Shown: positions 22,528-39,915 of the stretch, in pieces
How the letters are laid out: each line of letters opens with the position of its first letter
How positions within the stretch are numbered: the first letter of the stretch is position 1
Assembly: GCF_024721305.1 (NCBI RefSeq)
Contig: NZ_JAMXOD010000023.1
Coordinates: 1 to 40,397, forward strand
Origin: Aequitasia blattaphilus
Lineage (GTDB): Bacteria; Bacillota; Clostridia; Lachnospirales; Lachnospiraceae
DNA: 40,397 bases
Direction: 5' to 3'
Made by a program: the position numbers and the translations under genes
Notes under the pieces: model-generated
Database searches by the model: none
The model's input: only the letters and a program-made list of their open reading frames with translations
What the model was told of the DNA's origin: nothing

Positions 22528-22565
22528 AAAAAACACTACTTATAATTATGATAATCATAAGTAGT
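22528..22565 (-). terminator. Terminator of the S8/ABC operon
   Basis: On the minus strand ACTACTTATGATTATC pairs with GATAATTATAAGTAGT-type sequence as a 31-bp near-perfect palindrome (one mismatch), followed by GTTTTTTAG. It is an AT-rich intrinsic terminator 28 nt after the permease stop. Confidence 0.7.
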
Positions 22566-22592
22566 ATACATGACATCTGCTAGAAGTTAATT

Positions 22593-25082
22593 TTACAATT
22601 CAGCATCATTCAAAGTGTCTGCAATTTCCTTTGGGGCTGTTAATTTCCAAATTACCAGCGGTATCCCTACTGATAATAGAATGATGAACGGCGTCATTAC
22701 TATCAATGGTGCTAGGGAGAAGCTATATGTGGCAGTCCACTGTGACTCAATATAGAATTTGACTACTGTTGTAATTGATATAATACTTAGAAAATATGAG
22801 GTGACTAAAATAATTGCTGCCATATTAGTCCCTTCAAAGAGCAACATTGTTGCAAGTTGCTTTTTTGTCATTCCCAATCCTTGCATTAATACAAATTCCT
22901 TTTTTCTTGAATTTATTGAATTAAAAATTAAGTTAATCAAATTAACAATTCCTATAATAGTCATCATAATCGCAATAATTTTCTGTATTAGTGTAGCTGC
23001 TCTTGTTTCATCCTTATAATTTTTCTCTATGCTATCTTGAGTTATGATTTGTAATTCATCATCCTGATTATACTTGTTGATAATAGCATTTACCTTTTCA
23101 CTCTTACCATTTTTAGTATTAAAGAAAAACTTTTTGGGCGTATTCCTTGGAAATAGAATTTGAAACGTTAAATTGGGCATATAAAAATCAATATGAAATT
23201 CTGCTCCACTCATTTCTTTGCCTTCTATAATCGGATATTGTGCATCTACGATCGCCATCACTTCATATTTTTTTCCGTCAATCTCCACTAATTCACCTAC
23301 TTTAAAATTAGGTTGTTGTTCTTCGAAATCCCCCCCAATGCTCCCTTGTGCAATGATGTAATCACCACTAGAGAATTTTTCTTTATCAATAATACCATCA
23401 ACTACTCTTTCAGAAATTCGGTCTGTAACTACTCCATCAATTCCATAAATAATAGCAGTACATTGATGCTCCGTCTTCATTCTTTCATAACCATCTATCC
23501 ATGCATAATTTTGGGCCATATAATCCAAGATTTCGCCATTGTTTTTTTCATAATATCTGGTAATATTCTCATATGCCACATCTGACAAGACAACTGCTGT
23601 ATCCTGCATATATAATGTACCTTTTTCGGATATTTCATCCGTGTTTAAAAGATCATTTATTAGTTCCGTTGAAATTGTGTCTCCTTGAGAATTATAATCT
23701 CCCCATGAAGTTACAGCCGTCTTCTCAGTAATTGTATAGTTACTAATCGCCACTTCATCCATATATTTATCTATGTCAAAGCTCTGTTCAATAACATATA
23801 TCCCACTTAGCACAACTAATGCAACTACCATCATAATAAAAGTCAAAGTATTTCTCTTTTTAAATCTTCCCAAATTTCCTATACTCATTTGAAACAAACT
23901 CGATATACTTGGTGCTGCTCTTCTAGTTTTTTTATTATAATCATGGCTATTTGTACTCTGTAATAATTCATCTGTATTTATATTACAAATAAAATGAATT
24001 GGTTTAATACAACAAAGGACGGCCACACCAAGAATCATCAGCGCACTCGTGAAAAAATCTATGCTGCTCTGATATACCATAATATTTTCTAGTCTTCCTA
24101 AGATACTATCAACCAAAAAAGTCCCTATAATACTTCCCATTCCTAATCCAATTACAATTCCACTGATTGTAATTATACTTATTTGCCTTAAGAACACATA
24201 TCTTAATTGACCATCTGTTGCCCCGACTATCTTTAGACGTCCATACAACTTTATATCAGTCATTGCGGTTATATGAATAATATTATACAAAACCAACAAT
24301 TCACAAATGAGCACCAATAAAATCCCTACTTTATAAGGCATAGTTTCTACACCCATTGAACTTCTAAGTGATGCATCGTAAACACTATTTAGAACCAGCT
24401 CTTTCCCTTCTATATCAAGTTCCTTCATCATTTTACTAAACATTGAATTCCAGTCTTTACCCCTATTAAAAGTAATTGCTATATCATAGGTATCAGAACC
24501 CTCCAAGACCATTTCTTCTGATACCCAAATTACTCTTTTTGCTCGCAAATCGCTTCCATTCCAACTGCCCACTACGGTAAATTCTTCATTCGTATTATCT
24601 TTGTTAGGAAAACTAAGCGTTACTTTATCACCTAGTTGCTTGTTGCCTAGTTCTTTTAGGATTGTAGAATCTAACGCAATTTCATTCCGGTGCGTTGGCA
24701 TTCTCCCTTCTTCTGGCAATGCTAATGCATACTCCGCATAAATTTGATCTGCAAATCGAACTTCTGTTGGTCTACCCCCAAATTCACTATTTGTCCCTTC
24801 CCCAATATATATTGATTTGCCACAATCACTAATTTTTTCATAAGTTTCTATCTTCTCATACTCAACTTCTGAAATTCCAGATACCACTCCATGTGCAGCA
24901 TTACCATACTGTTCTAAATAATTTCGCTCCATATTTTTATATGTCGTTGTTGATAATATTCTAAGTGCAGTGACTAACAATGTTATAACACTCACTACAG
25001 CTATAAGTAAAAAGTTTCTAAGCAAATGATTTTTAAAGTTCCTATTCATCAATTTCTTAATCATCTGCTTGTTATTTTTCAT
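22593..25082 (-). CDS. FtsX/MacB-type ABC permease
   Basis: An 829-aa membrane protein. One helix near residues 20-45 is followed by a large extracytoplasmic MacB-PCD-like domain of about 200 residues. Three helices follow near residues 255-360, then a second helix-plus-extracellular-domain unit from about 410 and three C-terminal helices (IIAIMMTIIGIVNLINLIFN and two more). This is the two-module FtsX layout of peptide or lipoprotein exporters and antimicrobial-peptide resistance transporters. It overlaps the upstream ATPase stop by 4 nt, so the two form one transporter. Placement directly behind a precursor peptide suggests immunity or export for the island's product. The substrate is inference. 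Confidence 0.85.
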   Translation of the reverse strand: MKNNKQMIKKLMNRNFKNHLLRNFLLIAVVSVITLLVTALRILSTTTYKNMERNYLEQYGNAAHGVVSGISEVEYEKIETYEKISDCGKSIYIGEGTNSEFGGRPTEVRFADQIYAEYALALPEEGRMPTHRNEIALDSTILKELGNKQLGDKVTLSFPNKDNTNEEFTVVGSWNGSDLRAKRVIWVSEEMVLEGSDTYDIAITFNRGKDWNSMFSKMMKELDIEGKELVLNSVYDASLRSSMGVETMPYKVGILLVLICELLVLYNIIHITAMTDIKLYGRLKIVGATDGQLRYVFLRQISIITISGIVIGLGMGSIIGTFLVDSILGRLENIMVYQSSIDFFTSALMILGVAVLCCIKPIHFICNINTDELLQSTNSHDYNKKTRRAAPSISSLFQMSIGNLGRFKKRNTLTFIMMVVALVVLSGIYVIEQSFDIDKYMDEVAISNYTITEKTAVTSWGDYNSQGDTISTELINDLLNTDEISEKGTLYMQDTAVVLSDVAYENITRYYEKNNGEILDYMAQNYAWIDGYERMKTEHQCTAIIYGIDGVVTDRISERVVDGIIDKEKFSSGDYIIAQGSIGGDFEEQQPNFKVGELVEIDGKKYEVMAIVDAQYPIIEGKEMSGAEFHIDFYMPNLTFQILFPRNTPKKFFFNTKNGKSEKVNAIINKYNQDDELQIITQDSIEKNYKDETRAATLIQKIIAIMMTIIGIVNLINLIFNSINSRKKEFVLMQGLGMTKKQLATMLLFEGTNMAAIILVTSYFLSIISITTVVKFYIESQWTATYSFSLAPLIVMTPFIILLSVGIPLVIWKLTAPKEIADTLNDAEL

Positions 25083-25765
25083 ATTTGCTTTCTCCTTTCG
25101 CTTATTTTTTGTACCTTACCATCTCGCAAGTAAATCACTCGTTCTGCATTATCTGCAATCTCCATATCATGCGTAATTAAGATAGCTGTCTGATTAAACT
25201 CTCTACATGTCATCTTTAACAATCCTGCAACCTCTAAACTAGCTTTACTATCAAGACTTCCTGTCGGTTCATCCGCCAATATTACTTTAGGCTTTGTGGC
25301 CAATGCTCTTGCAATTGCTACCTTTTGTCGTTCTCCATTAGAGAGTGCCACTGGAAGCATATCCATCTTATCATCCAATTTTAAAAGATATGCAATCTGA
25401 TAAATATACTCTCTATCAACATCTCGGCCATCTAATTCTAGTGTAAAAATAATATTTTCATACACATTCAATTCCGTTAATAAGTTGTATTCGCGAAAGA
25501 CAAATCCTATATTTCTACGCCGAAAGAGTGCTTTATCATCCTTTCTAAAAAACGAAATATCAGTACCTTCAATTAGGACTTTTCCGCTATCTGGTTGTCG
25601 CAATCCACCAATCAACTGCATTAAGGTTGTTTTCCCACAACCAGATGGTCCTACAATTGCTGTAAACCCTTTTTCTATTTCCAGATTTATATTGTCAATA
25701 GCCTTAACAACATTCGGTTCTTTGCCATAGCTTTTATTTAAGTCTTTCAGTTCAATTACCTTCAT
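25079..25765 (-). CDS. ABC transporter ATPase (MacB/LolD type)
   Basis: A 228-aa ATPase with Walker A GPSGCGKTT near residue 40, Q-loop FREYNLLTELNVYENI, a signature ALSNGERQKVAIARAL (LSNGE in place of LSGGQ), Walker B VILADEPTGS and H-loop LITHD. The EPTGSLD block is diagnostic of the LolD/MacB/SalX group. It is coupled to the FtsX permease downstream (4-nt overlap). It follows the 64-aa precursor gene after 15 nt, so transporter and peptide are made from one message. Confidence 0.9.
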   Translation of the reverse strand: MKVIELKDLNKSYGKEPNVVKAIDNINLEIEKGFTAIVGPSGCGKTTLMQLIGGLRQPDSGKVLIEGTDISFFRKDDKALFRRRNIGFVFREYNLLTELNVYENIIFTLELDGRDVDREYIYQIAYLLKLDDKMDMLPVALSNGERQKVAIARALATKPKVILADEPTGSLDSKASLEVAGLLKMTCREFNQTAILITHDMEIADNAERVIYLRDGKVQKISERRKQI

Positions 25766-25780
25766 TCTATCTCCTTCAAA

Positions 25781-25975
25781 TTAACTTAAAACTGTAATCG
25801 TTGGCATCATAACTGTGCTAAAACAATCCGAGGAACAACGTTGTGCATTTACCCCTGAGCAACTATCATAGCCATCTATCACGTCTGCCAAAAAGAATTC
25901 ATCGTCGTCTAAATCATCTTCGGTAATAATCTTTTCTCGTAAACTCATCCCATTCTTTTTATTCTTCCAAAACAT
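25781..25975 (-). CDS. Divergent Cys-containing RiPP precursor (fourth of the island)
   Basis: A 64-aa peptide with a strong ribosome site (AAGGAGG, 7 nt before ATG). The N-terminal half is charged (LREKIITEDDLDDDEFFLAD) like a leader. The C-terminal half is DVIDGYDSCSGVNAQRCSSD followed by CFSTVMMPTITVLS. Cysteines are C39, C47 and C51. Aligned with the three tandem precursors at 39228-39736 it keeps acid-G-Y-x-x-C, an R before the second Cys, and D-C at the third, giving [DE]GYxxC-x6/7-C-x2-D-C. It lies between the subtilisin-like peptidase and the ABC transporter. Whether the distant radical SAM enzymes also modify it is inference. Confidence 0.75.
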   Translation of the reverse strand: MFWKNKKNGMSLREKIITEDDLDDDEFFLADVIDGYDSCSGVNAQRCSSDCFSTVMMPTITVLS

Positions 25976-25990
25976 TTCGTTTCCTCCTTA

Positions 25991-27073
25991 TTATTTGTAT
26001 ACACTTTTTATGTAACCATTTCGTTGCTTTCCGATTATCATTCGTTCATATGTACTCAAAATCGGAAATATTGTTATTACTTTAATTTGACAATCCACCA
26101 GAAAGTTCAATAATGTCAATAGGTATTCATTATTTTCATATATGAACTGATTGGTTAATGAACCTATATAAAAATAATCGATTTCTTTTACCATCTTCTT
26201 TAGTTTGCTTCTATCAAAAGGATATAGTTCATGAAAGCAAGTATCAATATCGCAAACATCTTTGTACATCCCATATATTTGCATATTATTAAAATCCATA
26301 TCATCTGCAAAATAAAGCACTTTTTTCTTCTCAAGTGAGTATAACTCCCTCTTATCCCGCTTGTTAAAATAAATTTTTTCAATATTGTCTCGCTTTATAA
26401 AATGTTTTAAAAAGTCCATAAAGCTTATCACATTATTTTCTTTTTTTTCGTCTGAAACATACATCCTACAATAAACGCCTGCAAGATAAGGGCATAAAAA
26501 GCTATTTCCCTTCCGCACTCCACATCGAACAATGTCAGGTATATAAACCTCATTATCTGAAAATTTAATCACCTTATCTTTATATGTAACCTTACAAAAC
26601 GAACTTGATTCTGCGGATGTTGTAACACCGATTACATTATCAAAATTAGCTGGATATGATTTCATGCCAGGTATATTATGGTCTGCTGCAAAAATCACAA
26701 TACCTTTTTTAACAGCTTCATCACAGACTTTTTTTAATTGATCAATTTTTCTTGCTGTAGCTGTGCAACTCCCTAGACTTAAATTAATTACATCCACTTG
26801 CTGTTCTATACAAAAATTGATCGCATCAATAATTATGGACAACGTACATTTATTGTCTCCTCGCAAGGTCTGAACTGATAGGATATTAATATCCGGAGCC
26901 TCTTTTAATAACACTTTAATTACTTCCGTTCCATGAGAGTTAATTCTACCGTTATGTTCTCTCCGAAACCCTTGTCCATCATAATAGTAATCATCAATTG
27001 TCTTTCCTTTAAAAATGACATCTTTCTTATTGACCCCTGAATCAATTACTGCGACTACCATTTTTTTATTCAT
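25991..27073 (-). CDS. Cytoplasmic S8 subtilisin-like peptidase
   Basis: A 360-aa serine peptidase. The catalytic triad is intact: D11 in VVAVIDSGV, H47 in INSHGTEV and S191 in GNSFLCPYLAG (GxSxxxPxxAG). N133 (AADHN) is in the oxyanion position. It has no signal peptide and no propeptide; the protease domain begins at residue 5, so it should act inside the cell. Residues about 205-360 form an extra domain I do not recognise (for example KKVLYFADDMDFNNMQIYGM). Placed 15 nt before a precursor gene, it is the best candidate for the leader peptidase. The exporter at 33898 lacks a C39 protease domain, so a separate leader protease is needed. Confidence 0.85.
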   Translation of the reverse strand: MNKKMVVAVIDSGVNKKDVIFKGKTIDDYYYDGQGFRREHNGRINSHGTEVIKVLLKEAPDINILSVQTLRGDNKCTLSIIIDAINFCIEQQVDVINLSLGSCTATARKIDQLKKVCDEAVKKGIVIFAADHNIPGMKSYPANFDNVIGVTTSAESSSFCKVTYKDKVIKFSDNEVYIPDIVRCGVRKGNSFLCPYLAGVYCRMYVSDEKKENNVISFMDFLKHFIKRDNIEKIYFNKRDKRELYSLEKKKVLYFADDMDFNNMQIYGMYKDVCDIDTCFHELYPFDRSKLKKMVKEIDYFYIGSLTNQFIYENNEYLLTLLNFLVDCQIKVITIFPILSTYERMIIGKQRNGYIKSVYK

Positions 27074-27106
27074 TTTCTATCATTCCTTTCTTCAGATAGT
27101 CATTTT

Positions 27107-27459
27107 CTATCTTCGTTTTCCCTTTGGTGTCATATCGAACTCTACTGCAATAATGTCCACAATCTGTTTATTCGCTAAAACTATCGGTAATGGCATCAGT
27201 TCTCTGGTTTCATTATCTGCATACCCAAACATCATTCCTTGATCACCTGCACTAATAATGGCCTTCTGGTCTACACCAAGTACGATATCTGACGATTGTT
27301 GTTTTATTGATATTTTAATCTCTACATCACCAAGCGAAAATCCATCCGCATCACTTTAGTAGCCGTTTTCACTAATTACTGTTCAGACAATTTGTGGAAT
27401 GTCTAACTTTGCTTTTGTTGTTATCTCTCCCATTACCAACACAATACCAATATTATTTG
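27107..27459 (-). pseudogene. metK: metK (S-adenosylmethionine synthetase) relic
   Basis: Read in one minus-strand frame, this stretch gives IGIVLVMGEITTKAKLDIPQ, then (after two stops) SDIVLGVDQ and [20 protein letters not shown] followed by PLPIVLA. These are unmistakable MetK segments, including the [10 protein letters not shown] loop and the VxGEITT strand. In-frame TGA and TAA occur in the middle, the first roughly 40 codons are absent, and homology fades after PLPIVLANK. The C-terminal two-thirds of MetK is missing. It cannot be functional. It sits between the agr-type promoter at 27482-27548 and the S8 peptidase gene. Confidence 0.8.
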
Positions 27460-27481
27460 TTGGATTTTTTGTTATTTCAAT

Positions 27482-27548
27482 TTTATGTTCAAAAAAAACT
27501 TTCTACAATAGGAGATGATTAATTCACCCGTGCCACTGTCTAACTGGA
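27482..27548 (-). promoter_or_regulatory. AgrA/LytTR-type promoter of the S8-precursor-ABC unit
   Basis: On the minus strand CCAGTTAGACAGTG lies upstream of GAATTAATCAT, with the two half-boxes 21 bp apart. A -10-like CATAAA (27487-27482) begins 27 nt after the proximal box. Geometry and sequence match the promoters at 30463-30530 and 39849-39915. LytTR regulators such as AgrA bind direct repeats of about 9 bp with a 21-bp period, so this is a plausible AgrA target. The S8 start lies about 410 nt downstream, past the metK relic. Confidence 0.5.
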
Positions 27549-27659: not shown

Positions 27660-27815
27660 TTATAAACATTTTAAGTTTACTAATTCCTCTGGTACTTCTT
27701 CTTGGTAAAAACTCCATCCACTATAACTAACGACAGCGGTTAATGCTAACGACCTTGTTATTTTAGCAAAATGACTTAACAGTAGCTTTTTCCATTTACG
27801 ACAGACCTTCCTCAT
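27660..27815 (-). CDS. agrD: AgrD-like autoinducer peptide precursor
   Basis: A 51-aa peptide with an excellent ribosome site (AAGGAGG, 7 nt before ATG). It has a basic amphipathic N-terminal helix (MRKVCRKWKKLLLSHFAKIT) and a hydrophobic stretch. The AgrD-type core/recognition region is SGWSFYQEEVPEEL, whose P-E-E-L matches the AgrB recognition tail. Aligned with clostridial AgrD peptides (C-x4-x-Q-x-x-x-P), Ser replaces the usual thiolactone Cys, predicting an ester-linked autoinducer near SGWSF. It overlaps the agrC end by 20 nt and is last in the operon, whereas most agr loci place agrD after agrB. It is too short for standard ORF thresholds. Confidence 0.8.
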   Translation of the reverse strand: MRKVCRKWKKLLLSHFAKITRSLALTAVVSYSGWSFYQEEVPEELVNLKCL

Positions 27816-29097
27816 GATACTTCCTCCTTACATTTTTTACGGGAATAATAGCACTCGCTATAAAGAATTTTCCTTCTGTAGCTAATGCTAAAACTGCTCC
27901 ATATTTTTTTAATGTTTCACGTACATTCATTATTCCTAAACCATGTAATCTTTTGTTTTTTTTCTCTGTAGCTAATAGCTCATACTCTTTACTTAAAGTC
28001 ATGCTATTTTTTATAACGATTGAAAGCATTTCTCCTTTCGTATTAACTTCAAAATATATAATTCTCTTCTCCATTTGAACTTTTTTTGTCGCTTCAATTG
28101 CATTATCTAATAAATTCCCAAATATCGAACTAATGTCTAATGGATCTATGAACTCTCCATGATAAAAATCTGCTTTTATCTCTAAACGTATTTCATACTT
28201 GCTTGCTTTCGCAATCTTATCTGCTAAAATTATGTCCAAAAACTCATTACCAGTATCATAATAATTTTCATATGAGTTCAATAGTTTTTTTGTTTTCTCA
28301 CTAATTTCATTCTTGTCAGACAGTAAAAAATGATTTTTCAAGTCATGATATACCTCTTTTATTTTTTCCTCTGCAAGCAGTCTTTTTAAGTAATATTCAT
28401 TTTTCAGCTTCAAATGATCATTTTCTTGTGCTTCAATCCGTTGTCGTTCTTGCATTTTTGTATAATTTTGCAAAAATATAACTAATGATACAAATGCAAG
28501 AAAAATACATATAGAGCACAGGATGAATAAATCAGCGCTTTTTGTATCATGTACCGCTGGTAAACTAATATGTATTGCAAATAATGTAATCATAAATGGT
28601 ATAGTTACTATTGGAATTAGTAATATTTCACGCAAATTGATTTTTTTCATACTTTTTTTCATAAAAGGCTTTAAAGTATACATAATCGTAAAATGTGTTG
28701 CATGAACAAGAAGATTTACTGTCAAAGAATAATCTTCATATATTGCATTATCCGAAAAAATAGGTTCATTAAAATTGTTCCAAACCTGTACAACAAAAAT
28801 TTGAGATATATAAAGTAAAAACATATAAATAATATTGTATACTGCAAGCTTTATCCATTTACATTCAAATACAAATACACCTATGCATGCATAGCTAGCA
28901 ACAATAATAACCATTTTAATCATTAAGTTTACATCAAAAAAAGATAATACTACCGTAATACCAATACATACAAAAAAATAAAACACTCTTCTAATACTTC
29001 CCTTTACTTTTTCATTTGACAAAAATATCAATAAAGTAATCACTTCAAACGCCGTGGAGACTATATCTATAATCACTGCTGACAATAAACTACTCAT
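27796..29097 (-). CDS. agrC: AgrC-like sensor histidine kinase (GHKL)
   Basis: A 433-aa kinase with about six to seven hydrophobic segments in the first 220 residues, forming a polytopic autoinducer sensor domain. A cytoplasmic kinase follows. The phospho-acceptor region is EVYHDLKNHFLLS near residue 245, as in AgrC/BlpH kinases (HDxxNH). The N box is SSIFGNLLDNAIEAT, and the G region KRLHGLGIMNVRETLKKYG is typical of HATPase_c_5. The ATG at 29097 overlaps the agrA stop as ATGA; an upstream TTG also exists. It should sense the AgrD-derived peptide and phosphorylate the LytTR regulator encoded upstream. Confidence 0.85.
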   Translation of the reverse strand: MSSLLSAVIIDIVSTAFEVITLLIFLSNEKVKGSIRRVFYFFVCIGITVVLSFFDVNLMIKMVIIVASYACIGVFVFECKWIKLAVYNIIYMFLLYISQIFVVQVWNNFNEPIFSDNAIYEDYSLTVNLLVHATHFTIMYTLKPFMKKSMKKINLREILLIPIVTIPFMITLFAIHISLPAVHDTKSADLFILCSICIFLAFVSLVIFLQNYTKMQERQRIEAQENDHLKLKNEYYLKRLLAEEKIKEVYHDLKNHFLLSDKNEISEKTKKLLNSYENYYDTGNEFLDIILADKIAKASKYEIRLEIKADFYHGEFIDPLDISSIFGNLLDNAIEATKKVQMEKRIIYFEVNTKGEMLSIVIKNSMTLSKEYELLATEKKNKRLHGLGIMNVRETLKKYGAVLALATEGKFFIASAIIPVKNVRRKYHEEGLS

Positions 29098-29804
29098 CCC
29101 CTTGTCCCCCAATACCTAGCCAAGGCTTCCAAAAATCCTTTTTTCTTTGTCTTACTTAATGGTATGCGCTCATTTGTACATAACTTCACTTCTGTACTTT
29201 CTACATTTTCTACATAAAACAAATTCACTAAATATGCTGAATGCGACCTTTGAAAACCCATTTGTCCTATTTTCGACTCCATCTCCTTCAAGCTCCAAAA
29301 GCACACCAAATTTCCTATGTCTGTATGCACCAGCAAATTTCTATTAAATGTATCAATATAACTTATATTCTTTAAAAAAATCCGATGTTTTCCATCGTTA
29401 TTATGAAAAAATATATAGGGCTCTTCTTTTACCAACAATTTTTGTACCCATCGCTCCAATTCATCTTTTAACCGCATATAAGAAATTGGTTTTTGAATAT
29501 AATTTCCTGCATTTACTTTATAACTTTCAAATGCATACTGTAACATCGAGGTAAGGAAAATAATGATAACATCTTTATCTATTTCTCTTATTTTTTTAGC
29601 CGTCTCAATTCCATTTAATCCTGGCATTTTTATATCTAGGAAGATAATATCATAATCCCCAATATAAGAAGATACCAACTCTTGTCCTCTTAAAAAGGTA
29701 TATGGTATCATTTGCACTCCTGTTTCCTCTGTATACCTCTCAATCAACCTTTTTAAACCTTCCACTACCTTCTCTGAATCATCACATATCGCTATCTTAA
29801 TCAT
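29094..29804 (-). CDS. agrA: AgrA-like LytTR response regulator
   Basis: A 236-aa regulator. Residues 1-120 form a receiver with acidic pocket D8/D9 (ICDDS), phospho-acceptor D57 in DIIFLDIKMPGLNG, T at the switch (IFLTSML) and K near 106 (IQKPIS). Residues about 135-236 form a LytTR DNA-binding domain (ISYIDTFNRNLLVHTDIGNL, then GFQRSHSAYLVNL and RIPLSKTKKKGFLE). It starts 3 nt after agrB and overlaps agrC. LytTR proteins bind paired 9-bp repeats; three such sites precede the three transcription units of this island, making this the likely master regulator. Confidence 0.9.
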   Translation of the reverse strand: MIKIAICDDSEKVVEGLKRLIERYTEETGVQMIPYTFLRGQELVSSYIGDYDIIFLDIKMPGLNGIETAKKIREIDKDVIIIFLTSMLQYAFESYKVNAGNYIQKPISYMRLKDELERWVQKLLVKEEPYIFFHNNDGKHRIFLKNISYIDTFNRNLLVHTDIGNLVCFWSLKEMESKIGQMGFQRSHSAYLVNLFYVENVESTEVKLCTNERIPLSKTKKKGFLEALARYWGTRG

Positions 29805-29807: not shown

Positions 29808-30425
29808 TTATTCCTCATCAAGAACAACACTATTTGCTTCATATCTTATGTTCTTAATACTTTCTACAATCAATAATATTGATATTAAAAATAGGGCTAA
29901 AATTATAAATAGACCCATTTCTTTCATCCTATTTGACATAAATATTGTCAATACAACAACCATGTTTACAAAAAGCAATCGTATTCTAATTTTTCGTCTA
30001 TACACTGGAACCTGATTCGGCTCAAAGGGCCTCTTTTTATGTTCAACTGGTGCTAAACGCAAAATCACAATATCAGCAATAATCATAAGTACATATAAAT
30101 AACTTTCCAGCACACTATTACTCAATATAATGTAATTCCATACACAACATAAACACATATAACTTCCTGTAAAAACAAGGGTGCAGTTTCTTCTGCATGA
30201 GGCATGATATCCTCCTGCAAATACCCTGATCGGGATAAATGCCAGAAGAAAAACAATTGTTTCAATTCTTCTACCACATAGCATACCGATTAACAGAATT
30301 AATGAAATGTTAATCATCTCTCCTAAAAATAACTTCATGCCATAAAAATAAATATCATATTCCATTTCCTTTACAACATTATTTCTGATAAATAATTTAA
30401 CAACCTTATCTGCTATATGCACCAT
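29808..30425 (-). CDS. agrB: AgrB-like autoinducer-processing membrane peptidase
   Basis: A 205-aa membrane protein with five to six hydrophobic segments. The catalytic dyad is H74 and C81 in FAGGYHASCRRNC, the AgrB Cys-protease motif. It removes the C-terminal tail of AgrD and forms the macrocycle. It is the first gene of the agr operon (agrB-agrA-agrC-agrD). The ATG follows GGGGGGATAAAGGG. The double LytTR-type box 71 nt upstream implies positive feedback by AgrA. Confidence 0.9.
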   Translation of the reverse strand: MVHIADKVVKLFIRNNVVKEMEYDIYFYGMKLFLGEMINISLILLIGMLCGRRIETIVFLLAFIPIRVFAGGYHASCRRNCTLVFTGSYMCLCCVWNYIILSNSVLESYLYVLMIIADIVILRLAPVEHKKRPFEPNQVPVYRRKIRIRLLFVNMVVVLTIFMSNRMKEMGLFIILALFLISILLIVESIKNIRYEANSVVLDEE

Positions 30426-33135: not shown

Positions 33136-33880
33136 CACGATCACCACCATTCAACTTACCTAATACATTTAGTAATTCTTGATGAAACTCATTCCGATTT
33201 CCTTTGTTTATTAGTTCGATATAAACTTTCCCATCCCGCATTACAATTACACGATCACAATGACTTGCGGCAAAACTATCATGGGTTACCATAAAGATCG
33301 TTGCTTTTAACTTCTTTTTCGCCTCAATAAATGCCCCTATTACTGCCTCACTAGAACGACTATCTAAATTTCCTGTTGGCTCATCTGCAAGAATCATTAA
33401 TGGATCATTCATTAACGCTCTAGCTACTGCTGTTCTTTGTCTTTGTCCACCTGAAATTTCCGTCGGATATTTTTTAGCAATATCCTTGATTCCAAACAGC
33501 TCTAACAAAAGCTCCGCCTTTGATTCCATTTGTTGATATGGAGCCTCCTTAATTACTTGTGGAATACATACATTTTCAAACACATTCAAACCATCTAGTA
33601 GCATAAAATCTTGAAAAACAAATCCTAGCCTTTCATTTCGCACTTTTGCTATCTGCTCTTCATTTAGCTTTCCTAAATCCTTATCTGCTAATAAAATTTC
33701 ACCTTTTTCATACGGAATATATTGCGATATACAGTTTAAGAGCGTCGTCTTCCCACTCCCTGATGGCCCCATTACAGCAACAAATTCTCCTTTTCTCACC
33801 TTAAAGTTGACATCCTTCAAAACATTATACTTTGCTTTTCCTGTCGTATATGATTTAAATAATTTTTTTACTTCTAGCAT
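33122..33880 (-). CDS. Bce-type ABC transporter ATPase
   Basis: A 252-aa ATPase with Walker A GPSGSGKTT near residue 40, Q-loop FVFQDFMLLDGLNVFENV, signature ISGGQRQRTAVARAL, Walker B MILADEPTGNLD and H-loop MVTHDS. The EPTGNLDS block places it with BceA/SalX/MacB ATPases. The ATG at 33880 has GAGGAGG upstream; the frame extends to a TTG at 33895 that overlaps that site. It overlaps the permease gene by 14 nt, and the two form one transporter. Confidence 0.9.
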   Translation of the reverse strand: MLEVKKLFKSYTTGKAKYNVLKDVNFKVRKGEFVAVMGPSGSGKTTLLNCISQYIPYEKGEILLADKDLGKLNEEQIAKVRNERLGFVFQDFMLLDGLNVFENVCIPQVIKEAPYQQMESKAELLLELFGIKDIAKKYPTEISGGQRQRTAVARALMNDPLMILADEPTGNLDSRSSEAVIGAFIEAKKKLKATIFMVTHDSFAASHCDRVIVMRDGKVYIELINKGNRNEFHQELLNVLGKLNGGDRDDNE

Positions 33881-33897
33881 AATTTGCCTCCTCAATT

Positions 33898-35574
33898 TTA
33901 ATACGCTTCTATCACATTTTCTAAGTTTACTTGTTGGACTGTTTTATTTTTCACTGCGTATATATTGTCAAAGAATTTACATTCTTCTATATTGTGCGTG
34001 ATAAAAACAACAATTTTATCTTTCTTTATTTTATCAACTAATTGAAACAGTAACTTACGCCGTTCAACATCAATAGATGCCGTACTTTCATCAAATATCA
34101 AAATATCTGACTCTTTTAATAATGCCCGCAAAACATCTAATCGTTTTTTTTGTCCTCCTGATAAATTACTAGTTCCGGAATTCAATACTGTGTTCCACTT
34201 ATCTGGTAAATTATCAATTTCTTCATAGAGATCTAACAATTTGCTATATTCTATTTGCTTGGCATGATTACGTTTGTTCCCTATATTAATATTTTCAATA
34301 ATACTACCTTCATAAAACAAAGATTCTTGTGCTACAAATGCAATTCTATCTCGCAATGTTTTTACTGATAAATCATTGATTTTTTGATTATTAATAAGGA
34401 TTTCGCCCTCTTTTGGATCATATAGGCGAAGAATCATCTTCACCATGGACGATTTACCACAGCCACTCCCACCTATAAATGCCGCTACTTCCCCTTGCTT
34501 TAATTCAACATTAATCTTTTCGAGGACAGAACTCCCCTTTATATATTCAAAGTCTACATCATTGAAACGAATACTACTAATTTTATCTTCTTCAATCTGA
34601 ATTCCCTTTTCCTCTTCTTCTTCATATGCTAATACGCTATAAAGCCTTTTCATTGCAATAACTGTACTTTGATAACTATTATTAAATTCTGCGAAGAAAG
34701 ACATTGGTGAAACTAACATCCCTTGATAATTAATCAGTGCTGTAATAGCTCCTACAGTAAGTTGACCTGAAATCACGCTAAATCCACCAAGTAGCCATAT
34801 AAATGCCGCTAACAAATAAATCAACAAACCTCCACTATTGATGTTTACCGAATAGACTACTTCTAGCTTAATTTGATTCCTATATTGACTCGAATATATT
34901 TCTTTAAACTTTTGATTAACATACTCATAAGCTGAATATATTTTTGTAATAAGTACATTCGTATAGTTTTCGGCAAGAGAACTGAGTGCTTTCTCATTCC
35001 ATTTCATGCTCTTCTCTGCCAAGTCTTTAACTTTAACACCCCAAAATTTATTGTTCATAATATAAAATACCAGAAGTACTACTGATATAACCATTACTCT
35101 CCAATCCATGGAGAGAATCATTATACTTGCCATAATAAATGTAACAATATTGCTTAACGACTTAATTAGCATATAACCACAATTTTCTTTGATTGTATCT
35201 ACCTCTTTGTTATATTTCGATAAAATATCACTCAGGCTATTTTCATCAAAATATGAATATTTCATTACAGATATTTTATTATTTAACTCTGTTCGCAACC
35301 GATAGCTTAATCCTTCTGCAATCTTCGCTAATAAATAGTCTTTTGCAACATTTAAGCCTGCAACAAAGAAATAGCAAAGCAGCATTATCACTACCATCTG
35401 CACAAACAATTTTGTATTTTTATTTGGAAATGCGTTATCCAAAAGTGTTCTACAAGTAAGAGGAATACACATTGTCACCATACTTTGCAGCACTGTAACT
35501 AAACAAACTAGCACAAAATATTTTTTCTCCATTAATATATATTTTTTTAAAAACAATCTATATACTTTACTCAT
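33898..35574 (-). CDS. ABC exporter, fused membrane and ATPase domains
   Basis: A 558-aa half-transporter. Residues about 1-310 form a six-helix exporter domain. Residues about 330-558 form the ATPase with Walker A GGSGCGKSS, signature LSGGQKKRLDVLRAL, Walker B ILIFDESTAS and H-loop FITHN. Unlike many RiPP exporters it has no N-terminal C39 peptidase. It follows the third radical SAM gene after 8 nt and should export the mature peptide, acting as a homodimer. Confidence 0.9.
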   Translation of the reverse strand: MSKVYRLFLKKYILMEKKYFVLVCLVTVLQSMVTMCIPLTCRTLLDNAFPNKNTKLFVQMVVIMLLCYFFVAGLNVAKDYLLAKIAEGLSYRLRTELNNKISVMKYSYFDENSLSDILSKYNKEVDTIKENCGYMLIKSLSNIVTFIMASIMILSMDWRVMVISVVLLVFYIMNNKFWGVKVKDLAEKSMKWNEKALSSLAENYTNVLITKIYSAYEYVNQKFKEIYSSQYRNQIKLEVVYSVNINSGGLLIYLLAAFIWLLGGFSVISGQLTVGAITALINYQGMLVSPMSFFAEFNNSYQSTVIAMKRLYSVLAYEEEEEKGIQIEEDKISSIRFNDVDFEYIKGSSVLEKINVELKQGEVAAFIGGSGCGKSSMVKMILRLYDPKEGEILINNQKINDLSVKTLRDRIAFVAQESLFYEGSIIENINIGNKRNHAKQIEYSKLLDLYEEIDNLPDKWNTVLNSGTSNLSGGQKKRLDVLRALLKESDILIFDESTASIDVERRKLLFQLVDKIKKDKIVVFITHNIEECKFFDNIYAVKNKTVQQVNLENVIEAY

Positions 35575-35582
35575 AAACAGCC

Positions 35583-36899
35583 TTATTCTCCCTTTATAAA
35601 ATCCTTGTGCCCCTGAAATCTTTCAAAGATTACTACATTTAAGTAACTTGCAATTCTTGTGAGTGCACTTTCTATCGACTCATTTCGTCTATAATAGTAC
35701 ATAGCATAATCCAACATTAACTTTGTATAAATGCATTTATCCGTGCCAGCTAGTCTATCCTCACTCTCTGCCATTTCTGCTGCACATGGCCCCGGGCAAA
35801 AATACTGATACTCGCAGCCAATACACCCTTTATTTTTATCAACCCGGAAAATCTGTTGATACTTTTCTGCTTGCTTTTTGTTCTTTAAATCCACTTGAAT
35901 CTCTTCAATCGAAAGTTGTCGAATATTTCCCATTGAAAACTTCTTATCTTTAAAGTTTCCGCACATATAGGTTGTGCCATCTGGATGAATTGCTAGTATT
36001 TTCCCATAAGCACCACAATTTTGTTTAGGTTGTAAATCCGCTAAGTAACTTCCTGCTAAAGTTTCTTCAAGATACTGTTTTTTTAATAAATATGAAATAA
36101 TTTCATGTTGAATTTTTATATGTGCATATTCACTTAATGCAAGCTCTTTTGCTGTTTTATCTTCCTTTGCTCTTCCCATCAAGGTTACTATCCTCGTTGT
36201 TAAAGCTGCATGGTATTTATGGCATAAATCGATTCCCTTGTAAACATACAGTAAACTCTTCTGATCAATCACATAAGATAATGAAAGAAATACATCCGAT
36301 TCATTGGCTGCCTTAAATACCGTTTCCATTCTCGCTAGCAATTTAGGATTGTCAAATAAATTTTCAATACTTACTTCTAAAATTCCTATCCGCTCAAAAT
36401 TTCTTTTTATAAATTCTGGACTTAATAATAGCCCATTTGTTTGGAATACTATTTTCTCTCTTCCAAACTCGGCTGCAAATAGAGATAAAACCTCTTCTAT
36501 ATCCATTCTAACCAATGGTTCCCCACCAGTTATCACTATCTTTTTTAGTGAAAGTTTTCTTAGTTTTGGTATTAATTCCTCTTTTATCTCTTGCAGAGTT
36601 AAATCATTTTCTGTCCCTACATGTGGGCCTGAGTTCATTGTACAAAAAGAACAGTTCAAATTGCATTTTCCAGTAACTGAAAAATATACACTTTGTATTT
36701 CGTCCTCTTTATTCTCAGTTTCATCTAATAACTGATATCTCTCTTGAAGATATTTTTCAAATGCTTCCTTTCTCTCTGTTGTCGAGGTTTCTTCATTAAA
36801 TTTCCTTTTACTCATTTTTACCCAGTGAAAATTTGTTGTATTTAAAAAAATAACGGTTTCATTCTTCTCTCTCTTAACCAATTCCTCTAACTTAATCAT
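35583..36899 (-). CDS. SPASM radical SAM peptide maturase 3, with RRE-like N-terminus
   Basis: A 438-aa radical SAM enzyme. The cluster motif CNLNCSFC is at C79, C83 and C86; the SAM-binding GGEP is in KIVITGGEPLVRM. The C-terminal SPASM Cys-rich domain spans about 300-410 (CGAYGKILAIHPDGTTYMCG, then CIGCEYQYFCPGPC). The first roughly 65 residues before the barrel (NETVIFLNTTNFHWVKMSKR) resemble a PqqD-like leader-recognition element, which the other two enzymes lack; that is fold-level inference. It likely installs a thioether or C-C crosslink on the precursors. It is co-operonic with the two other maturases. Confidence 0.9.
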   Translation of the reverse strand: MIKLEELVKREKNETVIFLNTTNFHWVKMSKRKFNEETSTTERKEAFEKYLQERYQLLDETENKEDEIQSVYFSVTGKCNLNCSFCTMNSGPHVGTENDLTLQEIKEELIPKLRKLSLKKIVITGGEPLVRMDIEEVLSLFAAEFGREKIVFQTNGLLLSPEFIKRNFERIGILEVSIENLFDNPKLLARMETVFKAANESDVFLSLSYVIDQKSLLYVYKGIDLCHKYHAALTTRIVTLMGRAKEDKTAKELALSEYAHIKIQHEIISYLLKKQYLEETLAGSYLADLQPKQNCGAYGKILAIHPDGTTYMCGNFKDKKFSMGNIRQLSIEEIQVDLKNKKQAEKYQQIFRVDKNKGCIGCEYQYFCPGPCAAEMAESEDRLAGTDKCIYTKLMLDYAMYYYRRNESIESALTRIASYLNVVIFERFQGHKDFIKGE

Positions 36900-36907
36900 A
36901 GTACCAC

Positions 36908-37984
36908 CTACATTACCAGATGACTGATTATTTCTTCATTATCCACATGAATCTTATGCATAAGTTTTCTCATCTTGCAAAAGATTTTTAAAGGTTTATT
37001 GACATCACCTGTACCTGCTAAATTTTGCATAATACATGACTGCTCTACACAATACTGGGAAATATCACAAGATTCACATTTTGGATTGTCAATTCCTCGG
37101 AAATTAACCAGTTTTCTGATTCTCTCTTTTTCTATTTTTTTAGTTACATTTCCTAATTCAACAGATGAATCTAAATACCCCGGACAAGCATAAACTCCAC
37201 CATCAGTTCTGACATATGAACTAACTATTCCAGCCCCACACGAATAGAATTTTTTCCTTTCCTGTTTTTTCAGGTTCACTACCTTATCGGCAAACTCCCA
37301 GCGAAATCCTTGATTATTTTTCGCACAGTCAATAAAATAATCAAACGACCGCTCAATTTCCTTTTCTAATACTGCAATTTGTTCATCTGTCCACTTAATG
37401 CTTAAATCTACTCCTGTGTCAATATATCTAAGTCCTAACTCCTGGGTTAAAAAAACTAACGATTCATAATATTTTTTGTAATTATTTTCCGTCACTACAT
37501 TAGTAACTTGAACTACTTTCCCTGTTCGCTCTTCAAATTCTTTAATGTACTTCAAATTCTTTAATATGATATCGAACGACCCTGCCCCTGATGTTGTAAC
37601 TCGGTTCATATCATGAGTCTCTTGATCCCCGTCAATGCTAATCTTCAAAGTGAATTCCTTTTCAATTAAATAATTCAAAATATCCTGATTGAAAATTGTA
37701 GCATTGGTTGTTGTTGAGAACAGCAAAGAATAACCATAATCTTTATTCTTTGCTTCTACATAAGAAACCATTGTTTGTAACATCTGAAAATCTAAAAATG
37801 TTTCTCCTCCAACAAAATCTATCCACAAGGTATTATCCTTATGTAGCTTCCCTTTTTCAAAAGCTAAATTAATAGCCTTATATCCTATTTCATCTGACAT
37901 CTTAGAGCCTGCTTTTTCTCCTAAATAGCAATATTTACACATCAGATTACACTTTTGATTTATTTCCAATGTTAAAATGTACAT
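36908..37984 (-). CDS. SPASM radical SAM peptide maturase 2
   Basis: A 358-aa enzyme. CNLMCKYC at C12, C16 and C19 starts almost at the N-terminus. The SAM motif is FVGGETFLDF (GGE), and the strand KISIDGDQETHDMNR is typical of peptide maturases. The SPASM region runs CGAGIVSSYVRTDGGVYACP, then CESCDISQYCVEQSC and a later IFC. It is clearly paralogous to maturase 1 (same CNLxCKYCY opening and SIDGDxETHxxNR). Only 4 nt separate its start from the end of maturase 1. It probably crosslinks Cys to an acceptor residue in the same precursors. Confidence 0.9.
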   Translation of the reverse strand: MYILTLEINQKCNLMCKYCYLGEKAGSKMSDEIGYKAINLAFEKGKLHKDNTLWIDFVGGETFLDFQMLQTMVSYVEAKNKDYGYSLLFSTTTNATIFNQDILNYLIEKEFTLKISIDGDQETHDMNRVTTSGAGSFDIILKNLKYIKEFEERTGKVVQVTNVVTENNYKKYYESLVFLTQELGLRYIDTGVDLSIKWTDEQIAVLEKEIERSFDYFIDCAKNNQGFRWEFADKVVNLKKQERKKFYSCGAGIVSSYVRTDGGVYACPGYLDSSVELGNVTKKIEKERIRKLVNFRGIDNPKCESCDISQYCVEQSCIMQNLAGTGDVNKPLKIFCKMRKLMHKIHVDNEEIISHLVM

Positions 37985-37988
37985 AATA

Positions 37989-39152
37989 TTAAATCACCTC
38001 TCTCTCTTGCTCCACTGACCTCATAATATCTAACATATAAGTACTTAGAGGTGTTTTATGGGAAAATGCTAATTCAATAAAGTTCATGACTCGCTTATTG
38101 TAGTTCTGATATAGTTCTTTAATCACTTTATAGTTATGATTGTATAAAATTCGCTGCAATCTACAGATATTCTCATGATGCTGATTTAAAAATCCCGTCA
38201 TTTTATAATTTAAAAAACCACACTTCGCACCACTACAAGTAAATGCAATATCACACTGTTTACAGCTAGAACATTTTTTAACATTACATCTTGCAGTACT
38301 AATAAACTTCTTCCTATCAAATTGTGTTGTTACACTCCCCATGTTCCAAGGCTTTTGATTTGATACAAAACCACAAGGGAAAAATTCACCTTTACTATTT
38401 ATAATCAAGTGATTTGTAGATCCCGCTGAACAATATGATGGCATCCGTTTATATACAAAAGTAGAAATTTTATAATCATAAAGATTTAAAATGCAATCAT
38501 CATTTTTTATTAATGTGTTTAAATAAAATTCATCCAATTGAGTCAACTGCTGATCATACTCATTTATCTGTTCTTCTGACCATTTGCTCATTTGATCTAA
38601 TCCTATATTAATCTTCTTAACTCCCATGTCATAAAAATATAGGACATTTTTATATAGTAAATGGACATTATTTGTTGTAACCGTCATCCTCACCGCAAAG
38701 TCCACATTATTTTCCAACATATAAAACATATTTTTCATAATAATATCGTAAACATCTTTTCCATTCACACTATGCCGATTCAAGTTATGAGTTTCTCTGT
38801 CTCCATCTATACTAATAGATGTCATTACTTGATTCTCCACCAAAAAAGAGACTGTTTTAGGATCTAATAAAATCCCATTTGTTGTTATCTGTAACTGAAA
38901 TAATTCCTTGATTTTCATATACTTTTGATTTATAATATCAACGACTTTAAATAATATTTGTTTGTTCATTAGTGGTTCACCACCCAACAGTAACAAATCA
39001 ATATTGTCATTAGGCATGTTATTTTCAACAATAAAAGCAAGACATTTCTCTAATGTACTTTCTGTCATATAGCTTTTATTTTTGCGATCTCCTTCATAGC
39101 AATATTTGCATCGAAGATTGCAATCATCTGTTAAATACAATGTACACTCCAT
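37989..39152 (-). CDS. SPASM radical SAM peptide maturase 1
   Basis: A 387-aa enzyme with CNLRCKYC at C11, C15 and C18, GGEP in LLLLGGEPLMNK and TSISIDGDRETHNLNRHSVN. A SPASM domain from about residue 240 holds many Cys (YCSAGSTNHLIINSKGEFFP, then CKQCDIAFTCSGAKC). It is the first maturase gene after the three precursors; a stem-loop separates them. The group resembles clostridial Cys-rich-peptide maturases (CcpM-like), an assignment made from architecture only. It likely acts on the YxYC/RCLNDC region of the precursors. Confidence 0.9.
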   Translation of the reverse strand: MECTLYLTDDCNLRCKYCYEGDRKNKSYMTESTLEKCLAFIVENNMPNDNIDLLLLGGEPLMNKQILFKVVDIINQKYMKIKELFQLQITTNGILLDPKTVSFLVENQVMTSISIDGDRETHNLNRHSVNGKDVYDIIMKNMFYMLENNVDFAVRMTVTTNNVHLLYKNVLYFYDMGVKKINIGLDQMSKWSEEQINEYDQQLTQLDEFYLNTLIKNDDCILNLYDYKISTFVYKRMPSYCSAGSTNHLIINSKGEFFPCGFVSNQKPWNMGSVTTQFDRKKFISTARCNVKKCSSCKQCDIAFTCSGAKCGFLNYKMTGFLNQHHENICRLQRILYNHNYKVIKELYQNYNKRVMNFIELAFSHKTPLSTYMLDIMRSVEQEREVI

Positions 39153-39177
39153 TTTTCAGTCCCCTTTCTTAATTACA

Positions 39178-39199
39178 TGAGGATGCTGACACATCCTCA
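39178..39199 (-). terminator. Stem-loop between precursor and maturase genes
   Basis: TGAGGATG pairs with CATCCTCA (8 bp, 6-nt loop). No T run follows on the minus strand, so it is more likely a partial attenuator or mRNA-stability element that raises precursor over enzyme levels. Confidence 0.55.
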
Positions 39200-39227
39200 C
39201 GTTTATAAACAGTTTTCTTACTTCATT

Positions 39228-39398
39228 CTAATTAAGGTCACTGATAAATGGAGTTGCTTTTCCACCACCACCACAGTCATTTAAACATCTTGATTTATGA
39301 GAATTGCAATATGCATATCCTTCTACTTCATCATCTTGTTCTGCTGTTCCTTCTGCTTTTTCTCCATTACTTTTTGGTAATTTGTTTTTTTCACTCAT
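39228..39398 (-). CDS. RiPP precursor peptide 3 of the tandem array
   Basis: A 56-aa peptide. The hydrophilic leader starts MSEKNKLPKS. The C-terminal core is EGYAYCNSHKSRCLNDC followed by GGGGKATPFISDLN. Cysteines are C31, C38 and C42 (C-x6-C-x3-C). The ribosome site GGAGA lies about 10 nt before the ATG. It is nearly identical in core to precursor 1 (39566-39736), and the leader start (EKNKLPK) is also shared. The repeated family next to three radical SAM genes marks it as the modified substrate. No GG-protease site is obvious in the leader; the Gly run lies inside the core. Confidence 0.85.
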   Translation of the reverse strand: MSEKNKLPKSNGEKAEGTAEQDDEVEGYAYCNSHKSRCLNDCGGGGKATPFISDLN

Positions 39399-39412
39399 CT
39401 TTTAATCTCCTT

Positions 39413-39562
39413 CTAATTCAGTGTGCTGATGTATGGTGTCGTATTACTATTACAATCATTTAAACATTTAGATTTACTAGAAGTACAATATGCATATCCT
39501 TCTACTTCATCTGTTTCATTTTGAAGCTGTTTCTCAGCTATTTCTTTATTTTCTTTCTCCAT
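39413..39562 (-). CDS. RiPP precursor peptide 2 of the tandem array
   Basis: A 49-aa peptide starting MEKENKEIAEK, with core EGYAYCTSSKSKCLNDC followed by NSNTTPYISTLN. Cysteines are C26, C33 and C37, with the same C-x6-C-x3-C spacing. The Gly4-Lys segment of its neighbours is replaced by NSN, but TP-[FY]-[IL]-S-x-L-N at the end is kept. It starts 3 nt before the end of precursor 1 and ends 14 nt before precursor 3. It may give a second, slightly different product. Confidence 0.85.
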   Translation of the reverse strand: MEKENKEIAEKQLQNETDEVEGYAYCTSSKSKCLNDCNSNTTPYISTLN

Positions 39563-39565
39563 AAT

Positions 39566-39736
39566 TTAATTAAGATCGCTCAAAAATGGGGTTGCTTTCC
39601 CTCCGCCACCACAGTCATTTAAACATCTTGCTCTATGAGTCTGGCAGTATGCATATCCTTCTACATCCTCATCCTGATTGTTTCTTTCGGTTACAGATTC
39701 TTCGTTACCTTTTGGTAGCTTGTTTTTTTCATTCAA
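39566..39736 (-). CDS. RiPP precursor peptide 1 of the tandem array (TTG start)
   Basis: A 56-aa peptide beginning at TTG (39736), eight nt after GGAG. An ATG lies 4 nt further in but in another frame, giving only 13 codons. The TTG frame gives NEKNKLPKGNEES, matching precursor 3's leader. The core is EGYAYCQTHRARCLNDC followed by GGGGKATPFLSDLN. Cysteines are C31, C38 and C42. It is the first and best-placed precursor behind the Agr-type promoter. The weak TTG start may tune dosage. Confidence 0.85.
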   Translation of the reverse strand: MNEKNKLPKGNEESVTERNNQDEDVEGYAYCQTHRARCLNDCGGGGKATPFLSDLN

Positions 39737-39779
39737 AATTAATTCTCCTTTTTCTTTTATTTAGTATCTTTTCCCATTT

Positions 39780-39809
39780 TCATGGCTTATCTCTTGCCAT
39801 GCTCATCAT
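39780..39809 (-). CDS. Possible 9-codon leader ORF before the precursors
   Basis: A perfect AAAGGAG site precedes ATG ATG AGC, giving MMSMARDKP. A second micro-frame, MKMGKDTK, overlaps its stop (ATGA). The ATG lies 73 nt from the Agr-type box, matching the 71 nt seen for agrB. It may be a translated leader, a decayed precursor start, or chance. Confidence 0.3.
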   Translation of the reverse strand: MMSMARDKP

Positions 39810-39848
39810 CGCTCCTTTCCGTTACTTTAAGTAACTTTTCATATACAC

Positions 39849-39915
39849 AGTATCACAGCCTTTCGTGAATGTATATCGAGATTGATTAACTCGACTTACT
39901 CAGTGCGTAATTAAC
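39849..39915 (-). promoter_or_regulatory. AgrA/LytTR-type promoter of the precursor/maturase unit
   Basis: The plus strand reads TTGATTAACT-N8-TCAGTGC (39882-39906), identical in both blocks and spacing to the agr promoter. On the minus strand the proximal box AGTTAATCAA is followed after 27 nt by GATACT (39854-39849), a -10-like hexamer. The distal box is weaker (ATTACGCAC instead of GTTAAGCAC). Confidence 0.65.

What the first reader, a model, noticed from the sequence alone, without database searches (positions are those of the whole stretch)
22535..39915. Agr-controlled multi-precursor radical SAM peptide island
One strand carries three precursors, three SPASM radical SAM enzymes, an ABC exporter, a Bce-type transporter, a complete agr system, a cytoplasmic subtilisin-like peptidase, a fourth precursor and a second FtsX transporter. 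Everything needed to make, mature, cleave, export, resist and time a Cys-bridged peptide is present. The precursor motif [DE]GYxxC-x6/7-C-x2-D-C is not one I can tie firmly to a named RiPP class; the closest known relatives are clostridial Cys-rich-peptide/CcpM-type and ranthipeptide systems.
Basis: partly seen in the sequence, partly recalled or inferred. Interest (0 to 1): 0.88.

Follow-up and report, generated by a model that had tools for sequence, protein, structure and literature searches.

The report
Quorum-linked three-enzyme Cys-crosslinked peptide operon
A bacterium carries an operon that very probably makes small cysteine-crosslinked peptides with three radical enzymes, trims them inside the cell and exports them; it belongs to a recurring, chemically uncharacterised group of such operons, here with a cell-density sensing module added, and its product is unknown.

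Summary
Confirmed. On the minus strand, 22593-39736, lie four Cys-rich precursors, three radical-SAM/SPASM enzymes, an ABC exporter without C39 peptidase, BceAB, AgrB-A-C-D, a QhpE-like subtilase without signal peptide and a MacB/FtsX transporter. No family-level NCBIfam model shown reaches its cut-off for precursors or maturases: not CcpM, Clo7bot, SCIFF, PapB or QhpD by those cut-offs. Three genomes (Anaerocolumna sp., Paenibacillus bouchesdurhonensis, a Eubacterium MAG) hold relatives of the precursors (EGYAYC-x6-C[LM]NDC) beside the same enzyme set. Trees of the maturases and subtilase recover the same six loci: a co-inherited set. A wider group with CxxDC precursors occurs in Clostridium, Blautia, Lachnotalea and on C. 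difficile and Paraclostridium sordellii plasmids. BceB, AgrB and AgrD were not found in the fetched stretches of the five nearest relatives; here BceAB-agr sits, beside a metK pseudogene, between exporter and subtilase: probably a grafted module. Agr control is inferred. Best reading: a ranthipeptide-like multi-thioether RiPP made by qhp-like logic (crosslink, cytosolic cleavage, export). A 2022 survey mentions a possibly identical uncharacterised "Cluster 115". New variant of a known kind.

The parts
39566..39736 (-). precursor P1 (56 aa, TTG start after AAGGAG), EGYAYC-x6-CLNDC
39413..39562 (-). precursor P2 (49 aa), EGYAYC-x6-CLNDC
39228..39398 (-). precursor P3 (56 aa), EGYAYC-x6-CLNDC
39175..39202 (-). 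12-bp-stem hairpin between precursors and maturases (region dG -20.3, z -4.6), perhaps a partial terminator or processing site
   Evidence: function inferred
37989..39152 (-). rSAM C, stand-alone PapB-like radical SAM/SPASM, paralogue 1
36908..37984 (-). rSAM B, stand-alone PapB/QhpD-like radical SAM/SPASM, paralogue 2
35583..36899 (-). rSAM A, radical SAM/SPASM; predicted N-terminal beta3-alpha2 domain, RRE-like by inference
33898..35574 (-). ABC exporter, membrane plus ATPase domain, no C39 peptidase
33122..33895 (-). BceA-like ATPase (named by its partner)
31012..33150 (-). BceB-like permease
30591..31049 (-). 152-aa protein of unknown kind, start overlaps BceB end; no relative in 8 related loci, no usable fold
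29808..30425 (-). AgrB
29094..29804 (-). AgrA-type LytTR response regulator
27796..29112 (-). AgrC-type histidine kinase
27660..27815 (-). AgrD; ring perhaps S-G-W-S-F, read by eye against the P. sordellii AgrDs
   Evidence: ring inferred
27116..27460 (-). metK pseudogene fragment (residues 45-177), perhaps a scar of the grafted block
25991..27073 (-). S8 subtilase, QhpE-like, no signal peptide
25781..25975 (-). precursor P4 (64 aa), DGYDSC-x7-CSSDC
25079..25765 (-). MacB/LolD-type ATPase
22593..25082 (-). FtsX/MacB-type permease

Best explanation
A RiPP operon, probably acquired, of what I call the CxxDC group. Short precursors with an acidic leader carry a core E-G-Y-A-Y-C-x6-C-[LM]-N-D-C and a short tail. 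rSAM A (with an RRE-like N-terminal domain) and two stand-alone PapB-like enzymes act in the cytosol and join Cys sulfurs to non-alpha carbons of nearby residues, most simply Cys38 to Asp41 of P1 (Cys-x2-Asp), up to three thioethers (2 Da lost per bridge). The QhpE-like subtilase then cuts the leader inside the cell, and the C39-less ABC exporter secretes the core. BceAB and the MacB-type pair most likely protect the producer, which makes a bacteriocin the likeliest product. The agr module, probably grafted between exporter and protease, probably times the operon. Shown by sequence: parts, co-inheritance, precursor conservation, position of the agr-BceAB block. Inferred: the chemistry, order of steps, immunity, agr control, bioactivity.
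For: Y28, C31, C38, D41 and C42 (P1 numbering) invariant in 10 class-I precursors from six loci. The same six loci in four clades of three trees: rSAM B clade 100/100 and rSAM C clade 98/97, rSAM A 100/100 and S8 100/99. Identities of the window to Eubacterium MAG / Anaerocolumna / Paenibacillus: rSAM C 52/48/46, rSAM B 46/46/46, rSAM A 42/38/38, exporter 50/54/47, S8 41/32/29%. Best named maturase model for rSAM B and C is PapB, E 7e-60 and 1e-58; for S8 it is QhpE, E 1e-30. The qhp precedent (passages of PMC7876137): QhpD makes Cys-Asp/Glu thioethers, QhpE cuts the leader before export by the ABC transporter QhpF. PapB accepts Cys-Xn-Asp, n 0-6 (passages of PMC9413430). rSAM A model: pLDDT 85.9; nearest solved folds are SPASM-type RiPP maturases and kin (SkfB, 5why/5wgg, anSME, PqqE, SuiB, TigE; TM 0.46-0.59 by query length). 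CxxDC in 16 of 22 loci against 0.44 expected. Tight operon: gaps of -38 to +15 bases except 75 (hairpin), 165 and 586.
Against: No maturase reaches a family-level cut-off, so the crosslink type rests on distant homology; rSAM A also resembles the sactipeptide maturase StsB (68.6 bits). No PqqD/RRE Pfam hit in six rSAM-A relatives or the window's own. No regulator binding site was searched for with a tool. AgrB, AgrD and BceB have no match in the fetched stretches of the five nearest relatives. Three loci of the wider group (L066, L078, L107) show no CxxDC ORF. Several long branches are flagged in the rSAM A and S8 trees. No expression or mass data.
Confidence: 0.7

Rival explanations
1. It is a CcpM-type (or lachnocin-type) Cys-rich clostridial peptide system, as the reader leaned to.
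For: CcpM cassettes L067, L074, L091 and the lachnocin cassette L090 share S8, ABC exporter and agr.
Against: Window rSAM B and C score 148.4 and 110.3 against the CcpM cut-off of 500 and lack its first ~85 residues; three maturases of 358-438 aa; S8 of 360 aa against 477-488 aa in those three CcpM cassettes and 560 aa in the lachnocin one.
Confidence: 0.07
2. Sactipeptide: the enzymes make Cys-to-alpha-carbon thioethers.
For: rSAM A has StsB as its second-best match.
Against: rSAM B and C match PapB (203, 199 bits), SCIFF and QhpD models better than the sactisynthase models shown (RumMC 77.0 for B, StsB 61.7 for C). A mixed product (one sactionine by rSAM A plus ranthionines) stays open.
Confidence: 0.15
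3. The peptide is a signal or other non-antimicrobial molecule, and BceAB/MacB are sensors or exporters rather than immunity.
For: SCIFF ranthipeptides are reported to take part in quorum sensing in clostridia (Chen 2020, seen only as cited in PMC8326336 and PMC11352710); agr sits in the operon.
Against: Bce-type and MacB-type pairs, precursor arrays and the plasmid location of relatives are typical of bacteriocins (recalled, no call).
Confidence: 0.25
4. Agr is a passenger that does not regulate the peptide.
For: AgrB and AgrD not found in the stretches of the five nearest relatives; agrB in 0 of 20 PapB-selected cassettes; a metK pseudogene at its border; gene order B-A-C-D; the precursors lie about 9-11 kb upstream of the agr genes.
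Against: Intact, overlapping agr genes in the direction of the operon; agrB in 7 of 19 S8-selected cassettes against 0 of 21 S8 loci without cassette, Fisher p 0.0027, and in two of three plasmid cassettes.
Confidence: 0.3

Closest known systems
qhp operon (quinohemoprotein amine dehydrogenase gamma-subunit maturation: QhpD, QhpE, QhpF)
   Same: radical SAM thioether enzyme, QhpE-like cytosolic subtilase, ABC exporter acting on a ribosomal peptide
   Different: three maturases instead of one, 49-64-aa precursors, likely immunity genes and agr; no QhpA/B/G among the cassette genes annotated here; QhpD and QhpE cut-offs not reached
PapA/PapB freyrasin (ranthipeptide)
   Same: stand-alone PapB-like maturases, Cys and Asp in the core
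   Different: core with three Cys and CxxDC, not six CX3D motifs; two PapB-like enzymes plus rSAM A; PapB cut-off not reached (203 and 199 against 340)
CcpM Cys-rich peptide and lachnocin cassettes
   Same: S8, ABC exporter and agr beside the rSAM gene
   Different: longer maturases with an N-terminal part, longer S8, CcpM and lachnocin cut-offs not reached by the window enzymes
Cluster 115 of Kostenko et al. 2022 (PMC9062424; section 4 and passages read)
   Same: 3-5 rSAM enzymes, a peptidase, precursor with at least three Cys, one in an Asp-Cys motif; uncharacterised
   Different: a hydrolase is named and agr is not in the text I saw; its sequences are in a figure and supplement that I could not see, so identity with this group is open
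Streptococcal RaS-RiPPs (Rgg/SHP)
   Same: quorum-sensing module beside an rSAM RiPP
   Different: agr instead of Rgg/SHP, other precursors (recalled; listings and abstracts only)

Membership tests
PapB ranthipeptide maturase (NF047865) | curated score 340 | tested here: not met
   202.9 and 198.7
PapB ranthipeptide | S to beta/gamma-carbon bond in the product | not testable with these tools
   needs MS/NMR
CcpM (TIGR04068) | curated score 500 | tested here: not met
   148.4, 110.3; cousins L067, L074, L091 pass
SCIFF (TIGR03974) | maturase score 425 | tested here: not met
   126.6, 151.0; precursors have 3 Cys, not 6
Clo7bot (TIGR04334) | maturase score 600 | tested here: not met
   77.6 for rSAM C; not among the 25 best shown for A and B
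qhp system | QhpD score 453 and QhpE score 165 | tested here: not met
   150.3/116.6 and 106.8
precursor families of NCBIfam | any model above cut-off | tested here: not met
   4 window and 10 relatives' precursors; best RiPP model TIGR04118, 13.3 and 14.1 against 35
agr system | AgrB, AgrD, AgrC-type kinase, LytTR regulator together | tested here: met
agr system | regulates the neighbouring operon | not tested
   needs expression data
BceAB | BceB-like permease with ATPase | tested here: met
   PDB 7tcg BceB, E 5e-8 over residues 7-336, sole match at E 0.001
radical SAM/SPASM | CxxxCxxC plus seven SPASM Cys | tested here: met
   invariant columns in A6 and A11; Pfam SPASM passes for rSAM A only; NCBIfam SPASM domain TIGR04085 passes for rSAM A
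CxxDC class I (this report) | EGYAYC-x6-CxNDC precursor with 2 PapB-like, 1 rSAM A, S8, exporter | tested here: met
   window, L121, L130, L146; L079 and L120 with looser precursors

The most novel reading that the evidence does not exclude
A distinct RiPP class: a fixed trio of radical SAM enzymes builds an overlapping multi-thioether knot around CxxDC, using a qhp-like cut-before-export pathway, in a cassette shared between Clostridia and Paenibacillus that swaps regulatory and immunity modules (agr-BceAB here).
Probability: 0.45. Interest if true: 0.75.

Novelty: new variant of a known kind. Interest (0 to 1): 0.6.

Why it matters
It links three things usually seen apart: multi-enzyme radical SAM thioether chemistry, a QhpE-like intracellular subtilase as likely leader protease, and agr quorum sensing. 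The 17-residue conserved core and three enzymes of 358-438 aa are easy to test in E. coli and would show how three related enzymes share one short substrate. Related cassettes on C. difficile and P. sordellii plasmids suggest that such pathways move on plasmids.

Tried and rejected
Named families: hmmscan against NCBIfam and Pfam gave no family-level model above cut-off for precursors or window maturases; only the 25 best models per protein are shown there. PHROGs and PADLOC were not run. First genome-contig scan, with the rSAM C sequence alone, found nothing; an alignment did. Precursor profile searches: A1 hit 7 of 398 family genomes at E 0.01, of which only the window and a relic in G353 convince me; the other five are partial 22-23-bit matches not followed up. 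A1 hit 5 of 392 order genomes at E 0.001, only the window convincing; A9 hit 1 of 388 phylum genomes, the window itself. A1 missed the G345 precursors, so these rates are lower bounds. Viral contigs with precursors or rSAM C: no relative. Plasmid search with rSAM A put the same C. difficile and P. sordellii plasmids among its best rows; its other rows, and the S8 rows, were not examined. The Anaerococcus and P. bifermentans hits were looked at and not used. Dedicated SAM synthetase idea: the metK fragment is a pseudogene, 43% to host MetK, and tblastn finds none in the other fetched loci. The 152-aa protein: no family above cut-off, no relative in the loci searched, unusable fold (pLDDT 39.7). 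The 8-kb distance rule missed the window itself, where S8 and rSAM genes lie over 8 kb apart; I count it by eye.

Literature: ten searches. In the listings, abstracts and passages that I saw, only the Cluster 115 passage (PMC9062424) resembles this group. Papers not in that library, and supplements, were not seen.
Full report
What is there. The window is one whole contig of 40397 bases of an unnamed 3.2-Mb genome. On its minus strand, read 5' to 3', stand P1, P2, P3, a hairpin, rSAM C, rSAM B, rSAM A, an ABC exporter, BceA, BceB, a 152-aa unknown, AgrB, AgrA, AgrC, AgrD, a metK fragment, an S8 subtilase, P4, an ABC ATPase and an FtsX permease. Gaps are -38 to +15 bases except after P3 (75, hairpin; z -4.6 against shuffles), before AgrB (165) and after AgrD (586, with the metK fragment). 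G+C is 32% against 39% for positions 1-20000. Right of P1 a transposase-like remnant (ISL3-like, recalled) runs into the contig end; left of FtsX stands an ATPase gene whose Pfam match covers only the C-terminal half of the ATPase domain.

Identity of the parts. PapB is the best named model for rSAM B and C (202.9 and 198.7, cut-off 340), with QhpD, CcpM and SCIFF among the next; rSAM A matches WgkB, StsB and MoaA weakly. The radical SAM and SPASM cysteines are complete. The AlphaFold model of rSAM A (12 rows, pLDDT 85.9) starts with three strands and two helices at high confidence, an RRE-like layout, and its nearest solved folds include SkfB, 5why/5wgg (CteB, name recalled), anSME, PqqE, SuiB and TigE at TM 0.46-0.59 by query length; Pfam shows no PqqD domain, so the RRE label is inference. 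The subtilase is QhpE-like (106.8, cut-off 165), has D11/H47/S191, and begins at its catalytic domain. The exporter has no C39 domain match. BceB's only solved relative at E 0.001 is BceB.

Relatives. Searching plasmids with rSAM C led to P. sordellii C171 and C116 and C. difficile pTW11 cassettes with two or three rSAM genes, a small Cys peptide, S8 and ABC exporter, the two P. sordellii ones with full agr. An S8 profile hit 200 of 398 genomes of the family; I fetched 40 listed places in 33 genomes, chosen from the top and from those with short S8 frames; 19 of 40 are rSAM+S8+ABC cassettes by the rule.

In the PapB-like tree, and in the rSAM A and S8 trees, the same six loci group together with strong support, each PapB-like paralogue in its own clade (several long branches are flagged there). 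A precursor and a 26-residue rSAM B fragment survive as a relic in G353. The subclass is rare: profile searches found it in few genomes.

Wider CxxDC group. Precursors with CxxDC occur in Clostridium oryzae (two), C. saudiense, Lachnotalea glycerini, Blautia sp. XA-2221, Blautia sp. Marseille-P3201T (ten), C. difficile pTW11, P. sordellii and unnamed relatives; Romboutsia weinsteinii has CxxNC. Shuffling the residues of intergenic short ORFs gives 0.44 loci with CxxDC expected, 16 of 22 seen; the motif was chosen after seeing part of these loci.

The graft. BLASTP at E 1e-5 finds no BceB, 152-aa, AgrB or AgrD relative in the stretches of L121, L130, L146, L120 and L079, and the agrB and agrD profiles find none there; AgrA-type regulators are matched in all five (weakly in L079, L121 and L130) and an AgrC-type kinase in L120. 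BceA matches only the MacB-type ATPases there, at 35-39%. In L130 the order is PapB-like, rSAM A, PapB-like, exporter, S8, ATPase, FtsX; in the window BceA to AgrD plus the metK fragment stand between exporter and S8. Gene order differs in the other four. Gain in the window lineage is the simplest reading. agrB is found in 3 of the 22 short-S8 loci (window and the two P. sordellii plasmids), and in 7 of 19 S8-selected cassettes against 0 of 21 S8 loci without cassette (Fisher p 0.0027). Those seven have S8 of 476-621 aa; of the five whose rSAM I scanned, three pass CcpM, one lachnocin, one (L071) nothing. None of the 20 PapB-selected cassettes has agrB; two PapB-selected loci without S8 do (L152, L155). 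So agr is a recurring but optional partner.

How it likely works. By the qhp precedent (passages of PMC7876137) crosslinking comes first, a cytosolic subtilase then removes the leader, and the ABC exporter secretes the product. PapB's tolerance of Cys-Xn-Asp with n 0-6 (passages of PMC9413430) makes a Cys38-Asp41 bond plausible. Three Cys and three maturases suggest up to three bridges; which enzyme makes which bond is open.

Known or new. PMC9062424 (section 4 and passages read; [quoted passage not shown] This may be the same group; I could not see its sequences. No NCBIfam model above cut-off names the 14 precursors tested. I rate it a new variant of a known kind (rSAM thioether RiPP), interest 0.6.

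Noticed in passing
window 27116-27460 (-): metK pseudogene, residues 45-177, 43% identical to the host's intact MetK, with in-frame stops
   Followed up: yes
window 39930-40397 (+): transposase-like remnant (ISL3-like, recalled) at the contig end
   Followed up: partly
window 21382-22536 (-): ATPase_2/DUF234 gene whose match lacks the N-terminal half of the ATPase domain, next to the cassette
   Followed up: no
L111 1681-19251: ten short ORFs with C[DN]P-x-[DN]-C-x2-DC in arrays around one rSAM-S8-ABC cassette in Blautia sp. Marseille-P3201T
   Followed up: partly
L121 15299-16156; L079 2172-3071: zinc-dependent phospholipase C-like protein with a signal-like start inside the L121 cassette; the L079 protein only looks alike by eye
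   Followed up: partly
L155 and L152: agr modules beside several PapB-type rSAM genes without S8
   Followed up: no
L077 13787-16048: 753-aa rSAM protein, possibly a fusion of rSAM A and a PapB-like enzyme
   Followed up: no
window 30591-31049 (-): 152-aa protein overlapping the bceB end, no relative found in the loci searched
   Followed up: partly
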